Source: Anaerolineae bacterium
GTDB lineage: Bacteria; Chloroflexota; Anaerolineae; B4-G1
Assembly (NCBI GenBank): GCA_016783285.1
Contig: JADHWW010000159.1
Span: 1-12,660, forward strand
Reading direction: 5' to 3'
Length of the DNA: 12,660 nt
Position 1 is the first letter of the stretch; each line of letters begins with the position of its first letter. Under the pieces are notes generated by a model that had not been told where the DNA came from, did no database searches, and saw nothing but the letters and a program-made list of their open reading frames with translations. Below are positions 1,300 through 12,660 of the stretch, one piece after another. The translations under genes were made by a program, and so were the position numbers.

Positions 1300-2442
1300 C
1301 TACTCCTCGCCCACTTCCATCCACTCATCCTCGCGGAAGGTGATCATTGGTAGTGGGTCCTCGACGCTGCGACCAGGCACGTAATCGAACGCTTCCTGGA
1401 CTTCCTGTCCGATGGTGCGGAAGACCAGTCCCACCGGCAACTCTGCCGGGCAGTCGCTGGTGCACATCCCGCAGCCGACGCAAGAGAGTACCATGTGGTT
1501 GAGCCGTGTCAGATGAAAGAGCGTCGTATCGGCCGGCAGCCGGTAGGCCCCCTTGCGTCGTGCCCAGTTCACGTACTGCATCGGCTCGTGGTCAAAGGTC
1601 GGGCTCTTGAAGAGACAGGTCTTGCAGTAGCAGATTGGACAGACGGTCATACAGTTGTGGCAGCGCACGCAGGCAGCCAAGACCCCTTCGACGCCCTCAT
1701 GCTCGAGTCGCTGGCGCATCTCGGCAAAGCGCTCATCGCGCACCTGGGTGTGGGCCGCGATCACCTTGTCCACCACCCCTGCCCGCTGTCCGCCATCCTC
1801 CACTGGGGCAAGGGCAAGCCTTGCCCCTACATCGTCGGACAGATGCACCGGGATGCCAGTAGTCAGATCCGCGCCGAACAATTCTAGCGTGATAGTCGGA
1901 AATCCGCAATCCGCAATCCGCAATCCGCAATCTCCTACGTGAGGCTTCTCGCACATCTGGCACCCGTCACGGAAAGCGTACCCTTCCTGCGGGGCCAGTT
2001 CGCCGCTCCGGGCGGTCGCCAGGTACGCCGCCAGATTCACCCCGCCGTCCGCTTGCATCCCGTTGTAGACCGGCACGTCGTAGGCGCCCAGGCAGTCCAC
2101 GCCGATGGTCACCAGATCGTCCAGGCTGGCTTGCTTGAGTTTGACCAGTTCCACCAGTGCCCGCAGTTCGCACGGGCGCAGCACCACGCCGATGTGTCCC
2201 CGTGGCTCGCGGATTGAAACTTGACCTGTGACACGCGCTGCGTTGAGTCCCATCACCGGGGCCAGCGGGTTGGCCGCGTCCAGCAGGTCGGGATCGGCTA
2301 CCAGTGCAGGGGTAATGGCGCCGGCGGGGGTCTCCATCGGCACCAGTAGCGCATCAACCACCTCGGCCTCCAACAACTGCCTGAGGAAACCACGCACGGC
2401 GGCCAGTGTATCGTTGTTCTCAACCGGTATTATAGTTTTCAT
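1300..2442 (-). CDS. FrhB/FdhB-like iron-sulfur (flavo)protein
   Basis: This 380-residue protein resembles the beta subunit of coenzyme F420 hydrogenase/formate dehydrogenase. The best match is RPCELRALVELVKLKQ (89-104) followed by VTIGVDCLG (111-119), then CQMCEKP (161-167). The C-terminal third adds two Fe-S regions: a Cys-dense stretch (C258, C261, C264, C268, C271, C273, C276) and a ferredoxin motif C321-C324-C327-C331-Pro. Family members usually bind FAD and move electrons between a two-electron carrier and Fe-S clusters. F420 use cannot be claimed from sequence. Residues about 169-215 hold two repeat-derived segments, from a heptamer array at 1901-1932 and a 9-bp hairpin at 1805-1827. 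The ATG at 2442 follows a GAGGGAAG-type site 19 bp after the giant HdrA stop, so the two are surely co-transcribed. It probably serves as a third electron port. Confidence 0.8.
   Translation of the reverse strand: MKTIIPVENNDTLAAVRGFLRQLLEAEVVDALLVPMETPAGAITPALVADPDLLDAANPLAPVMGLNAARVTGQVSIREPRGHIGVVLRPCELRALVELVKLKQASLDDLVTIGVDCLGAYDVPVYNGMQADGGVNLAAYLATARSGELAPQEGYAFRDGCQMCEKPHVGDCGLRIADCGFPTITLELFGADLTTGIPVHLSDDVGARLALAPVEDGGQRAGVVDKVIAAHTQVRDERFAEMRQRLEHEGVEGVLAACVRCHNCMTVCPICYCKTCLFKSPTFDHEPMQYVNWARRKGAYRLPADTTLFHLTRLNHMVLSCVGCGMCTSDCPAELPVGLVFRTIGQEVQEAFDYVPGRSVEDPLPMITFREDEWMEVGEE
1805..1827. repeat. 9-bp perfect hairpin inside the FrhB-like gene
   Basis: GGGGCAAGG (1805-1813) is the exact reverse complement of CCTTGCCCC (1819-1827), with a 5-nt loop. 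It is in frame in the FrhB-like gene, encoding part of the segment around VGARLALAPVE. The sequence resembles palindromic repeats I recall as scattered through some bacterial genomes. Copy number cannot be judged from one window. Confidence 0.6.
1901..1932. repeat. 7-bp tandem array, unit AATCCGC, about 4.6 copies
   Basis: Four perfect AATCCGC units plus four bases lie inside the FrhB-like gene. On the minus strand they encode the low-complexity stretch GDCGLRIADCG, just after the conserved CEKP motif. The reading frame is kept across the array. Confidence 0.95.
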
Positions 2443-2461: not shown

Positions 2462-5400
2462 TCACCAAGCGCCGCTCATCGCGTCCAACATCTGATAAAC
2501 TTGGCCTGTCCCGAACCCTTTCTGCTGACTGGCCTTGTTGGGGCAGGCGGTGATGCACGTTCCACAGCCCTGGCACAGCACCTCGATCACTTCAGCATAC
2601 GTTGCGCCTGGCTCCAGCACGCGGGCACCATAAGGACAGACTTCAACGCAAAGCCCGCAGGCTGTGCACAAAAGTGGATCAACACAGGCGACAATCGGCG
2701 TTGCATCCAGTTGGTCTCTGGAGAGCAGGCTGACCGCGCGCACCGCCGCGCCCTGCGCCTGCGCAATCGCCTCGTCCAGAAAATGCGGCGAGTGTGCTAA
2801 TCCACACAAGTACACCCCATCTGCTGCAAAGTCCAGCGGTCGCAACTTGACGTGCGCCTCCAGGAAGAAACCATCCTCGTTTAACGGCACCTTGAGCCGT
2901 TGGGCCAATGCTTCGTTGTCCACGTTCGGCTCAATGCCAGCGCTGAGCACGACTAGATCCGCACCAAGCGTAAATGTCTCCCCCTCCGGCTGCACCACCA
3001 CGTCCACCTGGAGATGGGGAGATGGGGAGATGGAGGGATGGAGGGATGGGGGGATGGCCTTCACCTCTGGCTTTTGATCCTTATCGTATTGGAGAAAGAT
3101 CACACCCTGCCGCCGTGCCTCCCGGTAGTAACGTTCCTTGAAGCCGAAGGTGCGGATGTCGCGATAGAGGATATACACCTGTGTCTCTGGGTTACGCTCC
3201 TTGATCACCAGCGCGTTTTTGATTGCCTCCGTGCAGCATACCCGTGAGCAATAGGGGTGCTGCTCGTCGCGGGAGCCCACGCACTGGATCATCACGACAC
3301 TGGTTGGTAGATTGGTAGATTGGTAGATTGGTAGATTGGTAGATGGCCCGGCTTCCCAATTTACCAATTTACCAGTTTCCCAATGTACCAGCATCTCTTC
3401 CAATTCCCGCTGTGTTACAACTCCAGGATGCTCGCCGTAGAGGTACTCCTGTGGCTCAATTTCTCGTGCGCCCGTCGCCACCACGATTACACCGTGCTGA
3501 ATCTCCTCCTGACGTCCATCGGCCAGGGCTACCTGAGTGCGATACTGCCCCACGTACCCGCCCATGTCCACGACTTCAGCGCCGGTCAGCACCGAAATGC
3601 GCGGATTGGCCGACACCTCCTCGATGGTTCGCCGTAGCAATGCCTGGGGATCGGTAGATTGGTAGATTGGTAGATTGGTAGATTGGTCGGTCGGTAACGG
3701 CACAAAGATATGTCGCAAATTCCCTCCCAACTCCGCCTCTCGCTCGACCAGCGTCACCTCAAATCCCTGCCCGGCGATGGAGAGTGCTGCTGTCATCCCG
3801 GCCAACCCGCCGCCGATGACCAGCGCGTGGTGGTTCACGTCGAAAAGGCCACGATCAAGAGGACACAGTTGCCGTGACTTGGCCACTGACATGCGCACCA
3901 GTTCTTTGGCCTTTTCCGTCGCGCTCTTGTGGTTGTCCCGGTGTACCCACGAGTCCTGCTCCCGGATGTTGGCCAACTGGAACAGGTGTGGGTTGAGCCC
4001 GGCTCCGCGAATCGTCTCCTGGAACAGAGGCTCGTGCGTGCGCGGCGTGCAGGAGGCCACCACTACCCGGTTCAGCCCGTGCTCCTCGATCAGTTCTCGA
4101 ATGCGCTCCTGCGTGTCCTGCGAACAGGTGTACAGATTTTCCTCGGCGTAGACCACATCGGGTAACCCCGTGGCATACTCGACCACCTCGGGCACGTCCA
4201 CCACAGCGCCGATGTTGATGCCGCAGTGGCAGATAAAGACGCCCACCCGGGGGTCTTCGTCGCTCACGTCGCGCTCTTCCGGCCAGACGCGCTCCTCCGT
4301 CAACGTGCCGCGCGCGTTGGCCAGCAGCGCTGAGGCCTGCGCCGCCGCGCAGGAAGCCTCGACCACCGTCTCCGGGATGTCCTTGGGCTCGCTGAACGGG
4401 CCGGCGACAAAGATGCCCGCCCGCGTCGTCTGCGCCGGCCCGAAAGAGGGCGACTCGGCGAAGCCGTATTCGTTCAACCCCACCCCCAGCCGTTCTGCCA
4501 GTTCCCGCATACCCTCCGGTGGCCGCAGACCCACCGAGAGCACCACCAGGTCGAACACTTCTTCGACGTTCTTGCCGTCGGCGGTGGCGTGCCTGACCCG
4601 CAAGTTGCCCGTCCCCGGCACATCCGTGATCGTGCTGACCATACTGCGCACGTAGCGCACGCCGTACTCTGCTTCCGCCCGCTCAATGTAACGCTCGAAC
4701 CCCTTGCCGAAGGAACGAACGTCCATGTAGAAAATGGTCGGCTCGACGTCAGGGGCGTGCTCCTTGGCGATGACGGCTTCCTTGGTGGCGTACATGCAGC
4801 AGACCGAGGAGCAGTATCCGTGGTCACACGAGATGTCGCGGGAGCCGACGCACTGGATGAAGGCCACCTTGCGCGGGTGTGCGCCATCGGAGGGGCGCTG
4901 CACTACGCCACCCCACGGCCCGGAGGCTGAGAGCATACGCTCGAACTCAATGCTGGTGACGACGTTGGGCAGCCGCCCGTACCCCAACTCGGGCCGGATG
5001 TCGCCGGGCATCGGCTCCGACCCCGGCGCCAGCACGACCGCGCCCACGTTCAGTTCGAGGATCTCCTCGCGCATATCGTGGTCGATGCAGTGCTTTTGGC
5101 AGGCGTAGACACATTGATTGCACTCGGAGCAGACGCCGCACTGCAAGCAGCGATTTGCTTCGGCGATGGCCTGTTCCTCGGTCATCGGTTTGCAGACCTC
5201 GCACAGGCTGTGAATGCGCTCGTCCGGCGACACTTCCAGAGTATGAGGGCGGCGGCCTGCCACGATCTGCCCGGCGGCCCGCTTGCGGGCAATGTCCTCC
5301 TCGGTCAACTCGGCTACTGGCAGTTGGGGCTCTGGGCCGGGCATTGGCTCGCCCCGCAGGTAGGCATCCATCGCCCGCGCGGCCTTGTGCCCGGCGCCGA

Positions 5401-7090
5401 TGGCGTTCACCACAAAGGCCATCCCCGTCACCGCGTCGCCAGCGGCAAAGATACCCTCGACGTTGGTCATCATCGTGCTCTCGTCCACAGCGATCTGACG
5501 ACTGTTGGAGGTCCGCTCAATGCTCTCCGGGATGCACTCCAGGTTGGGCCGGGCGCCGATGGCCGAAATGACCACGTCGGCGTCCATCAGGAACTCGGAT
5601 CCCTCGATGGGGATCGGACGGCGACGCCCGCTCTCGTCCGGCTCGCCCAGTTCCATGCGGATGCAACTCAAACCGCAGACGTTGCCCTCCCCGTCAGCCA
5701 CCACCTCCACCGGCGAGACCAGCCAGTTCAAGATCACACCATCTTCTTTGGCCTGGCGGATCTCGTCCTCCCGGGCCGGCATCTCCGCCTCGGTGCGGCG
5801 ATAGGCAATTCGCACCTCGGGAGGATCACCTCCGTTCTCATCGGCTTGCATTGTGCCGATGCGCAACGCCGTGCAGACCGCATCCATCGCCACGTCGCCG
5901 CCGCCCAGCACGATCACCTGCTTGCCCATCAGGTCGGGGTGTCGCCCCAGACTGGCGTCGCGCAAGAAATCGTTCGCCAACAGCATCTGCGGCCGGTCAA
6001 CGCCAGGGATGGAGAGTTGTACGTCGGCGTGAGCACCGATGGCCACGAAGACGACGCTGTAACCGTCGTCTTTGAGCGCCACTACGTCGTCCACCCGAGT
6101 GTTCAGTTTCAATTCAATGCCCAGGTCTATGATCTCGTCTATCTCGCGCTGCAACAGGTCGTGGGGCAACCGGTACGCGGGGATACCCACGCGCATCATA
6201 CCGCCGGCCACGGGCAGCGCCTCGAAGACCGTCACGTCGTGCCCCTTGAGTCTGAGGTCCTGGGCCACGGTCAAGCCGGCCGGGCCGGAGCCGACGATGG
6301 CCACACGCTTGCCCGTCGGTTCGACCTCCGGCCGCTCCCACACCCCCACGCCCCCACACTCTTCAGGATGCTCGAAAGCCCAGTCGGTGACGAAACGCTT
6401 GAGCCGCATAATGCTGACCGGCTCGTCCACCTGCCCCCGCGAGCAAACGTCCTCACACACGTGGTTGCACACGCGCCCGCAGACCGCGGGAAAGGGGTTG
6501 TCTTCCTTGATCGCGCGGTAAGCGTCGGCGAAGCGACCCTCGCGGATCAGCGCGATGTAACCCTGTGCCCGCTGCCCGGTGGGACAGGCGTCACGGCAGG
6601 GAGCGCGCCCGTGCTTTTCGATGACGTAGGCGTTGGGTATCGCCTGCGGGTAGAGCCTGTAGACCGCTTGCCGCTCGGACAAGCCGACGTTGAATTGGTC
6701 GGGGCGGGTGATGGGGCAGACTGCCGCGCAGTCGCCACAGCCGGTACATTCATCCACGACGACGTAGCGCGGCTTCTGGCGCACGCGCGCCGTAAAGTTG
6801 CCCGGCTCGCCGGCGACGCTCTCCAGTTCGGCGTAGGTCATCACCTCAATGTTGAGGTGCCGGCCGCACTCGACCAACTTGGGCGAAAGGATGCACATGG
6901 CGCAGTCGTTGGTGGGGAACGTCTTGTCGAGTTGCGCCATCGTGCCGCCGATGGCGGGGCTTTTGTCCAGCAGGTATACCTTGAAGCCGGCCTCCGCCAG
7001 GTCGAGCGACGCCTGGATGCCTCCAATGCCAGCACCAACGACCAGCGCCGCACCGACCTTGCCGTTGTTATCCTCAGAGGACTTTATCAT
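2462..7090 (-). CDS. Giant HdrA-[GltD/NfnB]-HdrA flavin/Fe-S fusion
   Basis: This 1542-residue protein contains three flavoprotein modules. Module 1 is HdrA-like: FAD motif GAGIGGIQAS (20-29), C63-A-M-C66 and ferredoxin motif C115-C118-C121-C125. A GltD/NfnB-like module (about 128-625) is nested in that ferredoxin region: CRDACP (165-170), VCGRVC...VCEDVC (203-216), GSGPAG (267-272), NADPH-type GGGDVAMD (396-403) and AAGDA (549-553). HdrA-1 then resumes with a Cys-rich segment (630-668) and the C747/C760/C764/C765 cluster set. A second HdrA follows: CHCG (954-957), SCTPRTHEP (1013-1021), FAD motif GGGLAG (1093-1098), C1270/C1281/C1285/C1286 and a C-terminal two-cluster ferredoxin (C1475-C1485, C1506-C1516). 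HdrA-2 lacks the CxxC motif. Start: AGGAG 5 nt before the ATG. It probably links NAD(P)H to ferredoxin and Hdr clusters, perhaps by bifurcation. Five repeat arrays sit in its loops without breaking the frame. Confidence 0.88.
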   Translation of the reverse strand: MIKSSEDNNGKVGAALVVGAGIGGIQASLDLAEAGFKVYLLDKSPAIGGTMAQLDKTFPTNDCAMCILSPKLVECGRHLNIEVMTYAELESVAGEPGNFTARVRQKPRYVVVDECTGCGDCAAVCPITRPDQFNVGLSERQAVYRLYPQAIPNAYVIEKHGRAPCRDACPTGQRAQGYIALIREGRFADAYRAIKEDNPFPAVCGRVCNHVCEDVCSRGQVDEPVSIMRLKRFVTDWAFEHPEECGGVGVWERPEVEPTGKRVAIVGSGPAGLTVAQDLRLKGHDVTVFEALPVAGGMMRVGIPAYRLPHDLLQREIDEIIDLGIELKLNTRVDDVVALKDDGYSVVFVAIGAHADVQLSIPGVDRPQMLLANDFLRDASLGRHPDLMGKQVIVLGGGDVAMDAVCTALRIGTMQADENGGDPPEVRIAYRRTEAEMPAREDEIRQAKEDGVILNWLVSPVEVVADGEGNVCGLSCIRMELGEPDESGRRRPIPIEGSEFLMDADVVISAIGARPNLECIPESIERTSNSRQIAVDESTMMTNVEGIFAAGDAVTGMAFVVNAIGAGHKAARAMDAYLRGEPMPGPEPQLPVAELTEEDIARKRAAGQIVAGRRPHTLEVSPDERIHSLCEVCKPMTEEQAIAEANRCLQCGVCSECNQCVYACQKHCIDHDMREEILELNVGAVVLAPGSEPMPGDIRPELGYGRLPNVVTSIEFERMLSASGPWGGVVQRPSDGAHPRKVAFIQCVGSRDISCDHGYCSSVCCMYATKEAVIAKEHAPDVEPTIFYMDVRSFGKGFERYIERAEAEYGVRYVRSMVSTITDVPGTGNLRVRHATADGKNVEEVFDLVVLSVGLRPPEGMRELAERLGVGLNEYGFAESPSFGPAQTTRAGIFVAGPFSEPKDIPETVVEASCAAAQASALLANARGTLTEERVWPEERDVSDEDPRVGVFICHCGINIGAVVDVPEVVEYATGLPDVVYAEENLYTCSQDTQERIRELIEEHGLNRVVVASCTPRTHEPLFQETIRGAGLNPHLFQLANIREQDSWVHRDNHKSATEKAKELVRMSVAKSRQLCPLDRGLFDVNHHALVIGGGLAGMTAALSIAGQGFEVTLVEREAELGGNLRHIFVPLPTDQSTNLPIYQSTDPQALLRRTIEEVSANPRISVLTGAEVVDMGGYVGQYRTQVALADGRQEEIQHGVIVVATGAREIEPQEYLYGEHPGVVTQRELEEMLVHWETGKLVNWEAGPSTNLPIYQSTNLPTSVVMIQCVGSRDEQHPYCSRVCCTEAIKNALVIKERNPETQVYILYRDIRTFGFKERYYREARRQGVIFLQYDKDQKPEVKAIPPSLHPSISPSPHLQVDVVVQPEGETFTLGADLVVLSAGIEPNVDNEALAQRLKVPLNEDGFFLEAHVKLRPLDFAADGVYLCGLAHSPHFLDEAIAQAQGAAVRAVSLLSRDQLDATPIVACVDPLLCTACGLCVEVCPYGARVLEPGATYAEVIEVLCQGCGTCITACPNKASQQKGFGTGQVYQMLDAMSGAW
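3011..3058. repeat. 8-bp tandem array, consensus GRGATGGR, 6 copies
   Basis: Six consecutive 8-bp units (GAGATGGG twice, then GAGATGGA, GGGATGGA, GGGATGGG, GGGATGGC) lie in the second HdrA module of the giant fusion. The 48 bp encode 16 residues (within AIPPSLHPSISPSPHLQ), so the insertion keeps frame. Confidence 0.95.
3304..3343. repeat. 8-bp tandem array, unit TTGGTAGA, 5 copies
   Basis: Five perfect units lie in the giant fusion and encode part of STNLPIYQSTNLP on the minus strand. The same unit appears again at 3653-3684, and a different 8-bp array follows 11 bp downstream on the plus strand. Confidence 0.95.
3355..3386. repeat. Degenerate 8-bp tandem array, about ACCAATTT, 4 copies
   Basis: The units are CCCAATTT, ACCAATTT, ACCAGTTT and CCCAATGT. 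On the minus strand they encode the HWETGKLVNWEAG segment of the giant fusion, immediately beside the TTGGTAGA array. Confidence 0.85.
3653..3684. repeat. 8-bp tandem array, unit GGTAGATT, 4 copies
   Basis: This is a second copy of the TTGGTAGA family, in shifted register, about 310 bp from the first. It encodes DQSTNLPIYQST, after the GGNLRHI motif of the second HdrA module. Confidence 0.95.
6338..6361. repeat. Short 8-bp tandem array, about CCACRCCC, 3 copies
   Basis: The units are CCACACCC, CCACGCCC and CCACACTC. They lie just before the NADPH-module GSGPAG motif (in coding direction), in the linker encoding ECGGVGVWERP. This is the shortest and least certain of the arrays. Confidence 0.6.
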
Positions 7091-7129: not shown

Positions 7130-7555
7130 CTAAACCATCCAGAGCCGCTCAATCGGGCCCAGCGCCTTTACTTCTTCCTGCACCTCTTTTATCAGACGAG
7201 GCAATATGCCCCTTTCCGCGGTCGAGATGTGGGCGAATCTCACTCTCCCTTTCATCACTCCGGCGGCTTTCAGGACCGTTTGCAGGACGGCGATCCTGTT
7301 CTCTGCCATCAGGTTGCCCCTTTTGTAGTGGCAGTCCCCCAGGTGACAACCGGCTACCAGCACACCGTCTATGCCTTCCTGCAAGGCCATCAAGACGTGC
7401 ATTGGGTCCATCCTCCCCAGGCAAGGAATCCTTACGATCCGAACGTTGGGCTGTTCCTGAACCCCGGCAATGTCAGCCCGATCAAGTTCAGAGTACAAGC
7501 ACCAATCGCATAAAAAGACCATGATCCTGGGTTCCCAATCTCGTTCACTCTCCAT
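7130..7555 (-). CDS. mvhD: Stand-alone MvhD-like [2Fe-2S] adaptor
   Basis: This 141-residue protein matches the MvhD family, the [2Fe-2S] subunit that carries electrons between an oxidoreductase and HdrA. Its motifs are FLCDWCLY (C16, C19), PCLGRMDP (C45) and GCHLGDCHY (C70, C75). The family's usual IVGFLCNWCSYAGADLAG start is recognisable but diverged, as LYSELDRADIAG. The gene overlaps the HdrC-like stop by 11 bp and sits 39 bp before the giant HdrA fusion. Start: the ATG at 7555 keeps the family-like WEPRI segment and lies inside a GGAGAAT tandem array that also supplies a GGAG 8 nt upstream. A second ATG at 7522 is possible but has no good ribosome site. It should be the adaptor for the HdrC-like and giant HdrA proteins, and complements the MvhD domain fused to the other HdrA. 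Confidence 0.87.
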   Translation of the reverse strand: MESERDWEPRIMVFLCDWCLYSELDRADIAGVQEQPNVRIVRIPCLGRMDPMHVLMALQEGIDGVLVAGCHLGDCHYKRGNLMAENRIAVLQTVLKAAGVMKGRVRFAHISTAERGILPRLIKEVQEEVKALGPIERLWMV

Positions 7556-8168
7556 TCTCCATTCTCCATTCTCCTCCGTTCCCCGTCTCTTCTGCGAACT
7601 CTCTGATCTGAGCGACGATCGTGTCGTCGCCGGCGTCTATCAGACTGATGGCAGAGACTGGGCAGGTGGTAGTGCAGATGCCACACCCCTGGCAGAGAAA
7701 CTTGTCCACCTGGGGCAAGGCTCTCTGTTGTCTCAGCGTCTGTTGTATCGTCACCCACCTGGGCATCAACTCGATGGCTTCGTAGGGGCAAGCCTGAGCA
7801 CACATGCCACAACCTGCACATGCCCGTTCGTTCACCTGGGCAACGGCTCTTACCGGCTCGTACCCCTCACGGATAGCCACGCTGCGGATGGCCTTCATCA
7901 GATCAGAGATGCGTATACCCTGGGGGCAGCGCCGGTAGCAGACGTCGCAGGCCGAGCAGAGCCAGATAACCGGGCTGGACAGAACCTGCTCTTTCATCCC
8001 CAGCATCACCATCGTGATGATCCGGCGCGGGTTGTATTTCTCTTCCACCCACGCGATGGGACAGGCGGCCGTACAGGTTCCGCAGGAGAAGCAGTACGTT
8101 AGTTTTTCGCCGCCAGGGGAGGTGCGAACTTTGTCAGCAAAGGTCTCACGTCGACTGCTATGATTCAT
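7545..8168 (-). CDS. HdrC-like protein with four [4Fe-4S] motifs
   Basis: This protein of 207 residues joins an HdrC-like N-terminus to a two-cluster ferredoxin. The HdrC part has C26-C29-C32-C36-Pro and C71-C74-C77-C81-Pro-QGI. The ferredoxin part has C117-C120-C123-C127-Pro and C159-C162-C165-C169-Pro. HdrC normally passes electrons from HdrA to HdrB. No HdrB is present, so here it probably relays electrons between HdrA, MvhD and other subunits. I chose the ATG at 8168 because the stop of a 21-codon ORF overlaps it (TAATG) and GGGAG lies upstream; a GTG at 8186 would add six residues but has no ribosome site. The last residues (EWRMENGE) come from a GAATGGA tandem array that runs up to the TGA, so the C-terminus is repeat-derived. 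The ORF overlaps the downstream mvhD by 11 bp. Confidence 0.85.
   Translation of the reverse strand: MNHSSRRETFADKVRTSPGGEKLTYCFSCGTCTAACPIAWVEEKYNPRRIITMVMLGMKEQVLSSPVIWLCSACDVCYRRCPQGIRISDLMKAIRSVAIREGYEPVRAVAQVNERACAGCGMCAQACPYEAIELMPRWVTIQQTLRQQRALPQVDKFLCQGCGICTTTCPVSAISLIDAGDDTIVAQIREFAEETGNGGEWRMENGE
7547..7574. repeat. 7-bp tandem array, unit ATTCTCC, about 4 copies
   Basis: The units are ACTCTCC followed by three ATTCTCC on the plus strand, which read GGAGAAT on the minus strand. The array spans the 3' end of the HdrC-like gene and contains the putative mvhD start. Each perfect unit carries GGAG and ATG. Confidence 0.95.
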
Positions 8169-8233
8169 TATGCCATAATCTCCCACAATCTGATGTGTCG
8201 GACATGGATAAATTGTAGATCGTAACCAGCCAT
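8168..8233 (-). CDS. 21-residue leader-type ORF before the HdrC-like gene
   Basis: An ATG at 8233 begins 21 codons ending with TAA at 8168-8170; the peptide ends HIRLWEIMA. AGGAG lies 8 nt before the start, and the stop overlaps the HdrC-like ATG by one base (TAATG), a layout typical of translational coupling. The peptide matches nothing I know. It could be a coupling leader, a remnant of a longer gene, or chance. The good ribosome-binding site and the overlap are the only support. Confidence 0.4.
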   Translation of the reverse strand: MAGYDLQFIHVRHIRLWEIMA

Positions 8234-8261: not shown

Positions 8262-8387
8262 TCAATCATGTCCACGGAGTATGACCTTCATCACCTCTTC
8301 CAGACAGGTTTCAAATGATGGTTGTAGGTTCTCTTTCCTCTCAACGTGCTTGTGATAGGGAGGGGTAGAGATAGAGACCTTGTTGTG
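8262..8387 (-). pseudogene. C-terminal remnant of a DUF6516-type toxin (possible)
   Basis: In a frame shifted from the antitoxin-like gene, codons after a TAA at 8388-8390 read STPPYHKHVERKEN, then LQPSFETCLEEVMKVI, ending with TGA at 8262-8264. The HKH motif followed by a PS/LEEV helix resembles the end of DUF6516 (TumE-type) toxins, which usually end with a PHHKH-like motif and a short LEEVL helix. There is no start and no N-terminal part. The 5' end overlaps the last 47 bases of the antitoxin-like gene. This is what an internal deletion joining the two genes' 3' ends would leave. The identification rests on recalled motifs only. Confidence 0.4.
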
Positions 8388-8691
8388 TTATTTCCTCCAG
8401 GGAAGCAATGTCCTTTTGGGTCTCGTCGGCAACCGCAGCCCAATGGTGCCACATAATGTAGTCTTCGTGCATCTCGTAGCCGGCATCGTCGGCCAGTCCG
8501 TCTGCATCCAATTGGGCCAGGCTAACATTGTATTTCTCTTTCAAGTGCCGCACCTTGCTCTCGGCAAGAAAGAGCCGTTTCCTCAAATGGGACAGCCTGA
8601 AGGCAGCCCCGTGACTGATGATGGTCTTTCTCTCCTCGCGGGGAAGTGACAAAAAGATTTGTTCTGTTTGCCTCTCGACGCCTGTGTTCAT
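8341..8691 (-). CDS. Small helical protein, antitoxin-like (uncertain)
   Basis: This 116-residue protein has no cysteines, unlike its neighbours. It is rich in charged helix, with a likely coiled coil in RLSHLRKRLFLAESKVRHL, and has a distinctive EMHEDYIMWHHW motif followed by a second helix. Similar small proteins with an EDYIEW-like motif occur beside DUF6516-type toxins, which suggests an orphan antitoxin; I cannot confirm this without a search. The ATG at 8691 has GGAGG 7 nt upstream. An in-frame ATG at 8715 has no such site and is rejected. The gene lies 72 bp after the HdrA-MvhD stop, with a perfect TATAAT at 8737-8742 between them, and may have its own promoter. It looks like an insertion into the redox cluster and gives no sign of a redox role. 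Its C-terminus (YLYPSLSQAR) may be altered by the deletion next to it. Confidence 0.6.
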   Translation of the reverse strand: MNTGVERQTEQIFLSLPREERKTIISHGAAFRLSHLRKRLFLAESKVRHLKEKYNVSLAQLDADGLADDAGYEMHEDYIMWHHWAAVADETQKDIASLEEITQQGLYLYPSLSQAR

Positions 8692-8736
8692 TTCCCTGCC
8701 TCCGTTCCATCGCATCCTGGTATCTTGACCGGCCTG

Positions 8737-8763: not shown

Positions 8764-11268
8764 TCAGTCCTCGCCTTTCATCATCGCTGCTGCGAGGCGA
8801 TCCGCATACGCCAACGCTTCCTCGACTCGTGGCGCCTCGCGCATCCGGCGGGCGCGTTTCTCCATCCTGGGACGCATCCGTTCGATCTCCTCCAACAATT
8901 GCTCTTTGGGAATCGAGTCCAGTGTTTCCTGCATCTCGTTGAGCACGCGCGCGTACTTGTCACCCTGGGCCGCGCTGATCCATTCGATGCGGAAACGGCC
9001 CGGCGTCATCCCCATCTTGCCAAACGTTTTGAGCAACCGGTCAGCACGCCTGGCACCAACCCGCTGGCCGGTGATGTAGTGACAGTCTTGCTCGTGGCAC
9101 CCCGAGTAAAGCACCGCGCCCGCGCCTAGACGGAAAGCCTCGTAGATGAAGTCAGAGTCCATACGGGCCGTGCACATCACGCGCAGCCCGCGCTCGTTGC
9201 TCGAGTACTCAAAGTGACTAGTCCCGGCCAGGTCGGCGCCGGGGTAGGAACACCAGTTGCAGCGGAAGGTCAGGATCTTTTCCTCCGGTTTATCGGCTAA
9301 AAGTGCGTGGATCTGGGCCAGAATCTGCGCATCGGTAAAGTGCAACTGGGTGGTGGCGTTGTGAGGGCACTCGGCCACGCAGGCGCCGCAGCCGTGACAT
9401 TTAGCGGTGATGACACGCGCCGCCTTGCCCTGCTCGTACTCAATGGCGTTGTAGGGGCAGGCTTTGGCGCACAAGCCGCATTTCTTGCCCTTGGCGCTGA
9501 CGCAGCGGTCCTCCCAGACGTAGGCCACGGTGGGCTCGATCTCCCACTCTTCGGCGTGGAGCACGCGCCCGGCCCGCGCCGCCGCAGCGGACCCTTGCGC
9601 CACGCTGGCGGGGATGTCCTTGATCCCCTGGCACGCGCCGGCCAGGAAGATCCCGTCGGTGGGAGTGTCCATCGGGCGCAGTTTGGGGTGGTACTCCATG
9701 AACCACCCGCCCGGGCTCTGGCTGATGTTGAGCACAGAACTCATCGTATCGGCGTCGGGCTGCGGGATGGCCGCCTGATTGAGCATCACCATATCGTACT
9801 CACGCTCTATGACGTGACCCAAATCCCTGTCCTCCGAGTGGACGAAAAGGTTGCCCGTTTCGGGGTCTTCAGTGATCAGGCTGGGACGGCCCTGGATGAA
9901 GCGGATCCCCATCTCACGCGCCCGGTCGTAGAATTCCTCATAGCCCTTGGAGGGAGTGCGGATGTCTATGTAGTAGATGACGATGTCCATATCGGGGTGG
10001 GCCTGCTTTAGCAGGATGGCGTTCTTGATGGCGTACATGCAGCAAAAGTTTGAGCACCAGGGGTTGAAGCGTTTGTCGCGGGAGCCGACGCAGTTGATGA
10101 TGGCCAGCCGGTTGGGGTTGGCCCCGTCGCCGGGGCGGATCAGGTTCCCGGCGGTCGGGCCGGCCGAGTTATTGAGCCGCTCTATCTCCATCGCCGTGAT
10201 CACGTTGGGGAAACGACCGTAGCCGTATTCGGGCATCACGCTAGGGTCAAAATGACTGTAGCCGGTGGCGGTGATGATCGTGCCAATGTCCTCCCAGACC
10301 AACTTGTCCTCGATGCTAAAGTCAATCGCCTCCAACTTGCCGCACGCCTCGACGCACTTGTAGCAATGGATGCAGTTCTCGATGTCAATGGTATAGATCA
10401 GGGGAACGGCCTGCGATTGCGGAACGTAGATCGCCTTACGCGGGGCCAGGTCCATTTCAAAGTAGTTGGGGACTTCGATGGGGCAGACCTGTACACACTC
10501 ACCACAGCCATTGCAGCGGTCAGCACGCACGTATCTGGATTTTTCTCGCAGCAGCACCTTAAAGTTGCCGACGAAGCCTTCCACACGCTCGACCTCGGTA
10601 TACGTTCTCATATCCACCCTGGGGTGACGCGCCGCGTCAACCATTTTGGGGGCCAGAATTCATATACTACAGTCCATGGTGGGAAAGGTCTTGTTGAGTT
10701 GCGCCATCACCCCGCCAATCGTCGGCTGCTTTTCCACCAGGATGGTTTCGATCCCCTGGTCGGCCAGGTCCAGCGCGGCGCTGATGCCGGCCACGCCCGC
10801 GCCGATGACCATCGCCCGCCTGGTGACGGGCACCTTGATCATGTCCAGCGGTGTGAGAAAGGAGGCTTTGGCAACGGCGGCAGCGGTCAGGGCCTTTGCC
10901 TTTGCCAGCGCGCCTTCGGGGTCGTGGCCGTGAGCCCAGGTGCATTGCTCGCGGATGTTGGCCATCTCCATCAGGAAGGGGTTGAGCCCGGCCTCGGCCA
11001 CGACGGCGCGGAAGGTCGGCTCGTGCATCTTTGGCGAACAGGCCGAAATCACTACTCGGTTCAGGTTGTACTTTTTAATGTCCTCTTTGATCAGGTTCTG
11101 ACCGCTATCGGCGCAGGCGTACATTGTATCAGTCGCGTGGACCACGCCGGGTAGATGCGCTGCGTACTCGGCCACGACCGCCGGGTCAATCACCCCGGCG
11201 ATGTTGGACCCGCAGTGGCAGACATACACGCCAATGCGCAGGCCTTCGTTTCCGTTATCTCCTGCCAT
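8764..11268 (-). CDS. hdrA: HdrA-MvhD fusion with in-frame TGA (selenoprotein)
   Basis: Read through the TGA at 10660-10662, this is one protein of 834 residues. In order: CHCG (17-20) and SACSPKMHEP (75-84) of the HdrA N-terminal domain; FAD motif GAGVAG (156-161); the C200-S-I-U203 motif; a ferredoxin domain (C252-C262, C299-C309); cluster ligands C393, C405, C409, C410; a C-terminal two-cluster ferredoxin (C589, C597, C600, C604 and C624-C634); and an MvhD domain from about 663 (C670, C673, C699, C724, C729). The giant HdrA in this window has Cys at the residue aligned with Sec203, and HdrA is an established selenoprotein family in methanogens and some bacteria. Both halves are intact, and the second half has no ribosome site of its own. 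Start: GAGGAG 5 nt before the ATG. HdrA uses FAD to split electron pairs; the fused MvhD should feed it. A recent nonsense mutation is the main alternative. Confidence 0.85.
10619..10656 (-). promoter_or_regulatory. Candidate bacterial SECIS hairpin
   Basis: In the mRNA just after the UGA, CUGG pairs with CCAG (outer stem), GG pairs with CC, and UGACGC pairs with GCGUCA around a GGC loop (apical stem 10625-10639). A single U bulges between the two inner stems and a 10-nt internal loop lies on the 5' side. The loop lies about 30 nt from the UGA, roughly where bacterial SECIS elements fall. It is coding sequence, as expected for a bacterial SECIS. The pairing is seen directly; the role is inferred. 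Confidence 0.5.
10660..10662 (-). other. In-frame UGA read as selenocysteine codon 203
   Basis: The minus-strand codons read D-C-S-I-(TGA)-I-L-A-P-K-M-V, matching N-D-C-A-M-C-I-L-S-P-K-L-V in the giant HdrA. The TGA sits exactly where the second Cys of the CxxC motif belongs, so the motif becomes CxxU. No frameshift occurs on either side. Confidence 0.8.
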
Positions 11269-11546: not shown

Positions 11547-12038
11547 CTACCGTCCAAGCACTTCCTCGATGGCCAGTTTGCGCCGTGCCCGTTGCGCCCG
11601 CCGGTCGGGCGTTGTGAGCTCGAGCGCCTCCTTGGGACACCACTTGACGCACTGCGGGCCGTCCTCCTCGTCTTCGCACTGGTCGCAGATTTCGGCCAAT
11701 TTGGTCTCCGGGTTGATCGAGATGGCGCCAAAGTCACAGGCCTCGATGCACCAGGCGCAGCCGTCGCAGCGATTGGCGTCTATGCGGATGACGCCGGTGA
11801 TCGGATCCTGAGACAGCGCATCGCGCGGACAGGCGATGACGCAGGGCGCGTCCTCACACGTGCGGCACGTCACCGCAGTCATCAAAATCTTGTGCGCGCG
11901 CACCGTGCGGATGCGGCTGCGAAAGGTATTGAACACGCCAGTCTTGGTGTACGAGCAGATGTACTCGCATAACTGGCAGCCCACACACTTGCTGGGGTCA
12001 CACGTGACGTATTGGTATTTGGAAGTTGATACAGGCAT
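11547..12038 (-). CDS. AOR-associated ferredoxin-type subunit, four [4Fe-4S]
   Basis: This 163-residue protein of the CooF/DmsB-like four-cluster type has Cys sets C18-C21-C24-C28, C58-C61-C66-C70, C91-C94-C97-C101 and C118-C121-C130-C134. There is no signal peptide or membrane segment, so it should be cytoplasmic. It follows the AOR gene by 9 bp: the AOR TAG is part of the AGGAG ribosome site that precedes this ATG, so the two are translationally linked. Small ferredoxin subunits of this type pair with AOR-family enzymes and carry electrons from their [4Fe-4S] cluster to downstream acceptors; here the likely acceptor is the HdrA-MvhD fusion. The lysine/arginine-rich C-terminal helix (RRAQRARRKLAIEE) is a plausible docking tail. 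Confidence 0.88.
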   Translation of the reverse strand: MPVSTSKYQYVTCDPSKCVGCQLCEYICSYTKTGVFNTFRSRIRTVRAHKILMTAVTCRTCEDAPCVIACPRDALSQDPITGVIRIDANRCDGCAWCIEACDFGAISINPETKLAEICDQCEDEEDGPQCVKWCPKEALELTTPDRRAQRARRKLAIEEVLGR

Positions 12039-12047
12039 ATCTCTCTC

Positions 12048-12660
12048 CTATACCCCGATTTCCTCGGCGACGTCGTCCATCCCCAACGCGATCAGTTTCT
12101 CCCTGGGGATCAACCCGTCCTTGGTCCAACCTTTGGCCTCGTAGTAAATGTCCTTCAGGTACTCTAGTTCCTCCGGCGTGACCACGTACCCGGCGGAAGG
12201 GCCTATTTCCATCGGTTCGTATTGCCACCGGTAGGGCAGGTGGTCGTCCTCGCGCGTCCAGCCCTCGCGGATGTTGAACGCCTTTTTGATCGTATGGGCC
12301 CGCTCGCCGATCACGTCCACGGCGTCGTAGTCAAAGTCCCAGCCGGTCGTGGCGTTGATCAGATTGGCGATGGCCGGCCACGCGCCGGCCCGGTCAGCCT
12401 TGCCGGTAAAGCAGCGCCGGATGAACTTGCACAGCGGCAGCGTGTCGTACACGGCGGCGTACTCCTCGGTGCTCTTGGCCAGTCTGCCCCGCGTCTCGTC
12501 AACACTAAAGCGGTCCACCTCTCCCTTGATGTCGGGGTCGTAGGCCGCCGTGCGGTTGTGGCAAGCGCCGCGCGTGCCCGCCGCCAGCCCCAGGGCAAAG
12601 GTCTTGAGAGTGCGCGCGTCGTAGCCGGGACATTCCAGCCCCTTGATGTTCATAGCCCAC
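12048..12660 (-). CDS. Aldehyde:ferredoxin oxidoreductase, C-terminal part (partial)
   Basis: The frame is open to the right edge, so only the last 203 or so residues are present; the Met at 12653 is internal. AOR-family C-terminal motifs are clear: KGLECPGYDAR, then RGACHNR, then DTLPLC (codon at 12429-12431), which corresponds to the DxxGLC motif whose Cys is the fourth ligand of the [4Fe-4S] cluster, with Pro where Gly is usual. Later NIREGW and a final KGWTKDGLIPREKL helix match the usual AOR ending. AOR enzymes use a tungsten bis-pterin cofactor to interconvert aldehydes and carboxylic acids with ferredoxin. The substrate cannot be told from this part. The remnant looks closer to ordinary AORs than to BamB-type benzoyl-CoA reductases, but this is a judgement from memory. 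It leads the cluster and is coupled to the ferredoxin subunit. Confidence 0.87.
   Translation of the reverse strand, partial: WAMNIKGLECPGYDARTLKTFALGLAAGTRGACHNRTAAYDPDIKGEVDRFSVDETRGRLAKSTEEYAAVYDTLPLCKFIRRCFTGKADRAGAWPAIANLINATTGWDFDYDAVDVIGERAHTIKKAFNIREGWTREDDHLPYRWQYEPMEIGPSAGYVVTPEELEYLKDIYYEAKGWTKDGLIPREKLIALGMDDVAEEIGV

What the first reader, a model, noticed from the sequence alone, without database searches (positions are those of the whole stretch)
8764..11268. Hidden selenoprotein: HdrA-MvhD fusion with a CxxU motif, seen as two split ORFs
Seen: one frame runs 11268 to 8764 with a single TGA, exactly where the aligned giant HdrA has the second Cys of CAMC. All cluster ligands on both sides are intact, and the second ORF has no ribosome site. 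Known: HdrA is a selenoprotein in some methanogens and bacteria. Automated callers would report two genes, or a pseudogene. Inference: Sec at this site would change the redox behaviour of the HdrA motif compared with its Cys paralogue in the same cluster.
Basis: partly seen in the sequence, partly recalled or inferred. Interest (0 to 1): 0.85.

Follow-up and report, generated by a model that had tools for sequence, protein, structure and literature searches.

The report
Selenocysteine HdrA-MvhD fusion in Anaerolineae
A gene that software reads as two pieces is almost certainly one gene for a selenium-containing electron-transfer protein of a known family, found intact in many related oxygen-avoiding bacteria and easily missed by automatic annotation.

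Summary
Window 11268..8764 (-) is one 834-residue frame with a single in-frame TGA at codon 203, within DCSI-U-ILAPK. All 55 Chloroflexota loci in which that codon could be read have TGA there and no other stop in the aligned stretch; 11 of 12 archaeal loci have Cys. Just downstream lies a hairpin that meets the four published criteria for a bacterial SECIS element. Its five degenerate codons are the only 5 of 438 scored codons without synonymous variation. The window's own genome is not held. SelB is over cut-off in 33 of 33 relatives' genomes searched that carry the TGA gene; of nine searched further, 9 have SelD, 8 full-length SelA and 7 tRNA-Sec(TCA). U203 aligns with Cys197 of a solved HdrA, described in PMC9012536 as the ligand one HdrA lends to its partner's N-terminal [4Fe-4S] cluster. 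The residue is therefore probably an inter-subunit cluster ligand. HdrA with CxxU is a known selenoprotein family, so this is a new member of a known kind. It lies beside a tungsten-type aldehyde oxidoreductase and an HdrA/NfnB fusion with Cys at the same site.

The parts
8764..11268 (-). Sec-containing HdrA-MvhD fusion gene (834 residues plus stop)
   Evidence: residues 10-659 match HdrA (5odc_A), 665-784 match MvhD/FlpD (PF02662)
10660..10662 (-). UGA codon 203, read as selenocysteine
   Evidence: TGA in 55 of 55 readable Chloroflexota loci; aligns with position 197 (Cys) of 5odc_A
10622..10642 (-). Coding-region SECIS-type hairpin GG-U-UGACGC-[GGC]-GCGUCA-N-CC
   Evidence: criteria
11547..12038 (-). 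4Fe-4S ferredoxin-type subunit next to the oxidoreductase
   Evidence: PF13247; homologue upstream in relatives
12048..12653 (-). C-terminal part of an aldehyde ferredoxin oxidoreductase (runs off the window)
   Evidence: PF01314; homologue upstream in 50 of 56 loci (hand count)
7545..8186 (-). HdrC-like 4Fe-4S protein
   Evidence: TIGR03290 93 bits, below its 160-bit cut-off
7130..7555 (-). Separate MvhD (all Cys)
   Evidence: PF02662, 142 bits
2462..7090 (-). Giant HdrA fusion (HdrL type) with an NfnB/GltD-like stretch; Cys at the site matching U203

Best explanation
11268..8764 (-) is one gene for a selenocysteine-containing HdrA-MvhD fusion. UGA-203 is decoded by SelB and tRNA-Sec with the help of the coding-region hairpin whose loop begins 26 nt after the UGA. 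Shown from sequence: one frame, conserved UGA, SECIS-model hairpin under RNA-level constraint, sel genes in relatives' genomes. Inferred from published structure descriptions: the protein dimerises and residue 203 of each subunit completes the N-terminal [4Fe-4S] cluster of the other, on the path between the bifurcating FAD and ferredoxin; selenolate would tune that cluster. Inferred from context, less certain: the complex is not a heterodisulfide reductase (no CCG domain among the nine scanned proteins) but an electron hub between the neighbouring aldehyde oxidoreductase with its ferredoxin subunit and an NAD(P)H module (the HdrA/NfnB fusion here; NAD-binding/DHODB and Fer4_22 proteins in the relatives L043 and L040).
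For: TGA in 55 of 55 readable Chloroflexota loci with no other stop. Hairpin identical over 18 bases in 55 of 56 Chloroflexota sequences, one loop change in L066. Codons 210-214 are the only 5 of 438 scored codons with no synonymous variation. All four bacterial SECIS criteria met. Two distant Chloroflexota relatives with TGA, L106 and L119, have another hairpin at the same place that differs between them by a U-A to C-G exchange. SelB over cut-off in 33 of 33 genomes searched; SelD 9 of 9, SelA 8 of 9 plus a contig-end fragment, tRNA-Sec with TCA 7 of 9. U203 aligns with position 197 of 5odc_A; ligand role from PMC9012536.
Against: The window's own genome and reads are not available. No Rfam match. 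A 69-nt fold around the UGA is no better than shuffles (z -0.53). Fold energy alone does not separate Sec from Cys genes: 6 of 17 stretches from 16 Cys loci reach -7.5 kcal/mol, though with interrupted stems. tRNA-Sec was not found in 2 of 9 genomes, G001 (home of the 90% relative L040) and G004. G039, home of L106, gave no selA or selB but has tRNA-Sec and SelD with a TGA. No protein-level evidence. The electron-hub role rests on gene neighbourhood only.
Confidence: 0.92

Rival explanations
1. Two separate genes: a 202-aa N-terminal HdrA piece and a 626-aa HdrA-MvhD protein starting at ATG 10644.
For: Both pieces are open frames, and 119 of 120 listed database proteins are annotated as the second piece.
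Against: No Shine-Dalgarno-like stretch before the second ATG, which overlaps the hairpin. The break lies inside the FAD domain at a residue that is Cys in 11 of 12 archaeal loci and in the full-length relative P0071. The stop is always TGA, never TAA or TAG, in 55 of 55 loci, and synonymous sites after it are frozen.
Confidence: 0.03
2. A pseudogene or sequencing error.
For: An in-frame stop in a single window could be either.
Against: The same TGA in 55 independent contigs, two of them from named cultured species, with intact frames and similar identity on both sides.
Confidence: 0.02
3. UGA is read as another amino acid (general code change or programmed readthrough by another tRNA).
For: The sequence alone shows only that the frame continues.
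Against: A SECIS-type hairpin follows the UGA, and SelA, SelB, SelD and tRNA-Sec occur in relatives. The window's neighbouring genes match their families without internal TGA, which speaks against a general change.
Confidence: 0.02
4. It is a selenoprotein, but Sec203 works with Cys200 as a thiol/selenol redox pair rather than as an Fe-S ligand.
For: The CxxU form resembles thiol/selenol motifs; Cys200 is TGT or TGC in all 57 aligned TGA sequences.
Against: The equivalent Cys197 is described as a ligand of the partner subunit's cluster, with complementary loss of this Cys and of the N-terminal domain in fused or tandem HdrA (PMC9012536); the window's giant HdrA shows the same complementarity by inspection.
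Confidence: 0.15

Closest known systems
HdrA selenoproteins (CxxU; listed under NF040770) of Methanococcales, Methanopyrus, Asgard archaea, Deltaproteobacteria and Clostridia
   Same: Same family, same CxxU position, UGA where homologues have Cys (passages of PMC1794560, PMC11227280, PMC13188914)
   Different: Here in Anaerolineae (Chloroflexota), with a bacterial SECIS in the coding region, fused to MvhD and next to an aldehyde oxidoreductase
HdrA1/HdrL Sec proteins of Desulfobacterium autotrophicum HRM2
   Same: Bacterial Sec-HdrA and HdrA/GltD-type fusions (HdrL) next to MvhD (PMC2702500 passages)
   Different: There HdrL1 and HdrL3 contain Sec; in this window the HdrL-type protein has Cys and the HdrA-MvhD fusion has Sec
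HdrA of the solved HdrABC-MvhAGD complex (5odc)
   Same: Match over residues 10-659, E 1.2e-248; U203 aligns with position 197
   Different: Cys in the chain sequence; MvhD is a separate chain; partners are HdrB, HdrC and a hydrogenase
FlxABCD-HdrABC type clusters (name recalled)
   Same: The relative L043 has HdrC, MvhD-like, Fer4_22 and NAD-binding/DHODB genes after the HdrA; L040 has the same kinds
   Different: In the window an HdrA/NfnB fusion and a 380-aa Fer4 protein are found there instead; no HdrB CCG domain found

Membership tests
HdrA selenoprotein (CxxU) | HdrA domain architecture | tested here: met
   (5odc_A, E 1.2e-248); NCBIfam HdrA2 1032 bits, just below its 1100-bit cut-off
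HdrA selenoprotein (CxxU) | UGA at the second position of the CxxC motif, Cys in homologues | tested here: met
   TGA in 55 of 55 readable Chloroflexota loci; Cys in 11 of 12 archaeal loci and in 16 of 19 loci
Bacterial SECIS element | Loop 3-9 nt, upper stem 4-16 bp | tested here: met
   Loop 3 nt, stem 6 bp (model)
Bacterial SECIS element | G in the first two loop positions | tested here: met
   Loop GGC, GUC in L066
Bacterial SECIS element | 16-37 nt between UGA and loop; MFE at or below -7.5 kcal/mol | tested here: met
   26 nt, -10.0 kcal/mol
Sec-decoding organism | selA, selB, selC, selD in the window's own genome | not testable with these tools
   No genome held; tested in relatives only
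Sec-decoding organism | selA, selB, selC, selD in relatives with the TGA gene | tested here: met
   selB 33 of 33; selD 9 of 9, selA 8 of 9 full length, tRNA-Sec 7 of 9
Heterodisulfide reductase HdrABC | HdrB with CCG domains | tested here: not met
   No PF02754 among the nine window proteins scanned; HdrB elsewhere in the genome cannot be excluded
HdrA selenoprotein (CxxU) | Selenium in the protein; bifurcating activity | not testable with these tools
   Needs expression, 75Se labelling or mass spectrometry, and enzymology

The most novel reading that the evidence does not exclude
In Anaerolineae an aldehyde-oxidoreductase/Hdr electron hub depends on selenium: two Sec-HdrA subunits each lend a selenolate to the partner's low-potential [4Fe-4S] cluster, while a second, fused HdrA pair encoded in the same cluster (HdrL) uses Cys at the matching site. 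One cell would then hold two bifurcating sites that differ in a ligand atom, a natural test of what Se does at a bridging Fe-S cluster.
Probability: 0.35. Interest if true: 0.6.

Novelty: new member of a known kind. Interest (0 to 1): 0.42.

Why it matters
The relatives include cultured Anaerolineae and many metagenome-assembled genomes, and all 55 loci that could be read carry this selenoprotein codon. Yet 119 of the 120 listed database relatives are a stump of 620-637 aa without the N-terminal cluster domain. Reconstructions built on such annotation would miss that domain, the dimer logic and the selenium requirement. By homology the Sec is an Fe-S ligand between subunits, a rare chemical role that could be tested in Pelolinea submarina or Ornatilinea apprima, both of which carry the gene and the Sec machinery.

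Tried and rejected
Rfam at gathering cut-offs gave nothing. A 69-nt fold around the UGA was not informative (z -0.53); the hairpin emerged from the alignment. Fold energy alone was rejected as a discriminator because 6 of 17 Cys-homologue stretches reach -7.5 kcal/mol; continuous stem, loop G and frozen synonymous sites carry the argument. The tRNA-Sec model at E 0.001 is not specific (14 of 14 control genomes ring, 5 over cut-off), so anticodons were checked: L080 holds two tRNA-Ser and a tRNA-Arg, not tRNA-Sec. Two-gene, pseudogene and other-amino-acid readings were rejected (see rivals).

Rows dropped: L057, L059, L063 and L070 do not cover codon 203 and L048 has no readable codon (GNN). 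One search left out the 12 archaeal loci and hits below 70% identity (59 loci plus the window used, n = 56 at codons 210-214). One search found no TGA for L103 in the frame used, so SelD hairpins were seen for 5 of 6 loci. In one search, 11 of 19 loci were on the other strand and were read. In one search L113 gave two stretches, so 16 Cys loci became 17 stretches.

Papers. Passages seen in PMC5736913, PMC1794560, PMC13188914, PMC11227280, PMC9312934, PMC2702500, PMC9012536 (also part 1 of 2 of section 15), PMC6019823, PMC12054007, PMC5322559, PMC1088965 and PMC6687939; other papers only as search listings. Searches showed me no report of a Sec-HdrA in Anaerolineae, but most listed papers were not opened, the library lacks most subscription papers, and NCBI's own annotation of these genomes was not visible.

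On recheck I corrected: the second ATG overlaps the hairpin (not 'two bases before' it); the invariant stretch is 18 bases, not 17; L010 has HdrL and the FdhB-like gene in another order than the window.

Full report
What is there. On the minus strand 11268..8764 is a single frame of 834 residues with one in-frame TGA at codon 203 (10662-10660); the ORF list splits it into 202 and 626 aa. Residues 10-659 match HdrA of a solved complex (5odc_A, E 1.2e-248) and residues 665-784 match MvhD/FlpD (PF02662). The best NCBIfam model is HdrA2 (NF040770, 1032 bits, just below its 1100-bit cut-off; C stands for U). Only the first ATG has a Shine-Dalgarno-like stretch.

Is the TGA kept? A scan of genome contigs brought 72 loci; none of its six peptide patterns includes the TGA site. 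Four loci do not cover codon 203 and one (L048) is unreadable there. Of the other 67, 55 are Chloroflexota, all TGA with no other stop in the aligned stretch, and 12 are archaeal, 11 with TGC or TGT and one (L062) with TGA. Two named cultured species, Ornatilinea apprima (L012) and Pelolinea submarina (L043), are among the 55. Mean identity to the window is 83% before the codon and 80% for residues 204-660 in 48 near-full-length loci. Of the 120 database relatives listed (of 7997 hits), 119 start at the M after the TGA; the one full-length protein, P0071 at 66% identity, has CSIC.

The SECIS element. After the UGA lies GG-U-UGACGC-[GGC]-GCGUCA-N-CC (10642-10622). In the 56 Chloroflexota sequences with TGA (window plus 55), the 18 bases from GG to the last A of the stem are identical except for one loop base in L066; the archaeal L062 differs widely. 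Codons 210-214 (V, D, A, A, R) are the only 5 of 438 scored codons with no synonymous variation (n = 56 sequences there); over the gene the median share of the commonest codon is 58%. The element meets all four points of the bacterial SECIS model quoted in the review PMC13188914: loop 3 nt, upper stem 6 bp, G in the first loop positions, 26 nt spacing, -10.0 kcal/mol. The layout recalls the E. coli fdhF SECIS (recalled, not tested). Two more distant Chloroflexota relatives with TGA, L106 (about 50% identity) and L119 (about 46%), have a different 7-bp hairpin with a GGUC loop at the same spot, and between those two a U-A pair is replaced by C-G. SelD genes with a TGA also show a downstream hairpin in 5 of 6 loci looked at.

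Results that help less or go against. A 69-nt fold around the UGA is no better than shuffles (z -0.53) and there is no Rfam match. Among 16 Cys-encoding Chloroflexota loci, 6 of 17 folded stretches also reach -7.5 kcal/mol, though with interrupted stems.

Machinery. The window's genome is not held. In nine Chloroflexota genomes that carry the TGA gene, SelB is over cut-off in 9, SelD in 9, in 8 of them with an in-frame TGA of its own, SelA in 8 plus a contig-end fragment in the ninth, and tRNA-Sec with anticodon TCA in 7, missing in G001 and G004. SelB was over cut-off in 24 of 24 further TGA genomes. The Bathyarchaeota genome whose HdrA has TGC gave no selA or selD match and no over-cut-off selB or tRNA-Sec. 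In a sample of 151 genomes of the phylum, 17 had a match at E 1e-180 or better, giving 19 loci: 3 with TGA at the site (one is Pelolinea again) and 16 with Cys. Of the 14 of these genomes whose listed matches are only Cys versions, 11 have SelB, so the machinery alone does not predict a Sec-HdrA. G039, home of L106, gave no selA or selB but has tRNA-Sec and a SelD with TGA.

How it probably works. U203 aligns with position 197 of 5odc_A, a Cys there. [quoted passage not shown] I take that structure to be 5odc (recalled; the paper names the organism M. wolfeii). The Sec-HdrA here has both features, so a symmetric dimer with two selenolate ligands is expected (inference). [quoted passage not shown] An NfnB/GltD-like stretch (residues about 158-672) lies in its first half.

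Setting. Upstream lie a 4Fe-4S subunit and an aldehyde ferredoxin oxidoreductase. A homologue of the latter was found upstream in 50 of the 56 Chloroflexota loci in the table (hand count). Of the six without it, L001, L010, L034 and L053 have at most 462 bases upstream, L055 is matched only in pieces, and L040 has a different neighbourhood. The Pelolinea copy is closer to aldehyde oxidoreductase 1aor (E 4.6e-107) than to benzoyl-CoA reductase 4z3w (2.6e-52). Downstream, L043 has HdrC, MvhD, Fer4_22 and NAD-binding/DHODB genes and a polyferredoxin, L040 a similar set with an MvhD fusion, and HdrC- and MvhD-like matches at similar distances appear in most other loci. L010 carries closely related HdrC, MvhD, FdhB-like and the edge of an HdrL, in an order other than the window's. 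No CCG domain (HdrB) was found among the nine window proteins scanned. I picture an electron hub between aldehyde oxidation and NAD(P)H/ferredoxin; direction and partners are inference.

Known or new. HdrA with CxxU is an established selenoprotein family in archaea and several bacterial groups (passages of PMC1794560, PMC11227280, PMC13188914, PMC2702500). Sec decoding in Chloroflexi is known (PMC5322559), and Sec-containing formate dehydrogenases are described in deep-sea Chloroflexi single cells (PMC5736913). PMC12054007 notes HdrA genes broken by misread Sec codons in Methanocaldococcus. The searches showed me no report of a Sec-HdrA in Anaerolineae, within an open-licence library and with most listings unopened. 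I rate this a new member of a known kind, well supported and of moderate interest.

Noticed in passing
window 2462-7090 (-): Giant HdrA (HdrL type, 1542 aa) whose two halves look complementary: the first has the Cys197-equivalent without the N-terminal domain, the second the reverse, with an NfnB/GltD-like stretch in the first half.
   Followed up: partly
window 8341-8715 (-): 124-aa ORF between the Sec-HdrA and HdrC without any Pfam or NCBIfam match.
   Followed up: no
window 1300-2442 (-): 380-aa protein with only a weak Fer4_8 match, possibly an FdhB/FlxB-like subunit; relatives show 20-32% matches in place, L010 65%.
   Followed up: no
L040: Relative with 90% identity in its best segment, yet no aldehyde oxidoreductase upstream (glycosyltransferase and glyoxalase-type genes instead) and a 486-aa MvhD fusion downstream.
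   Followed up: partly
L097, L098: SelD in a 738-753 aa open frame without TGA in G003 (Pelolinea) and G006; G006 also has a SelD with TGA.
   Followed up: no
L062:5547-5549: Archaeal contig with TGA at the same HdrA site but without the bacterial hairpin; its sel genes were not searched.
   Followed up: no
L107: Cys-encoding Chloroflexota HdrA-MvhD (48% identity) with a weaker hairpin (-6.7 kcal/mol) at the SECIS position, possibly a relic of a Sec ancestor.
   Followed up: no
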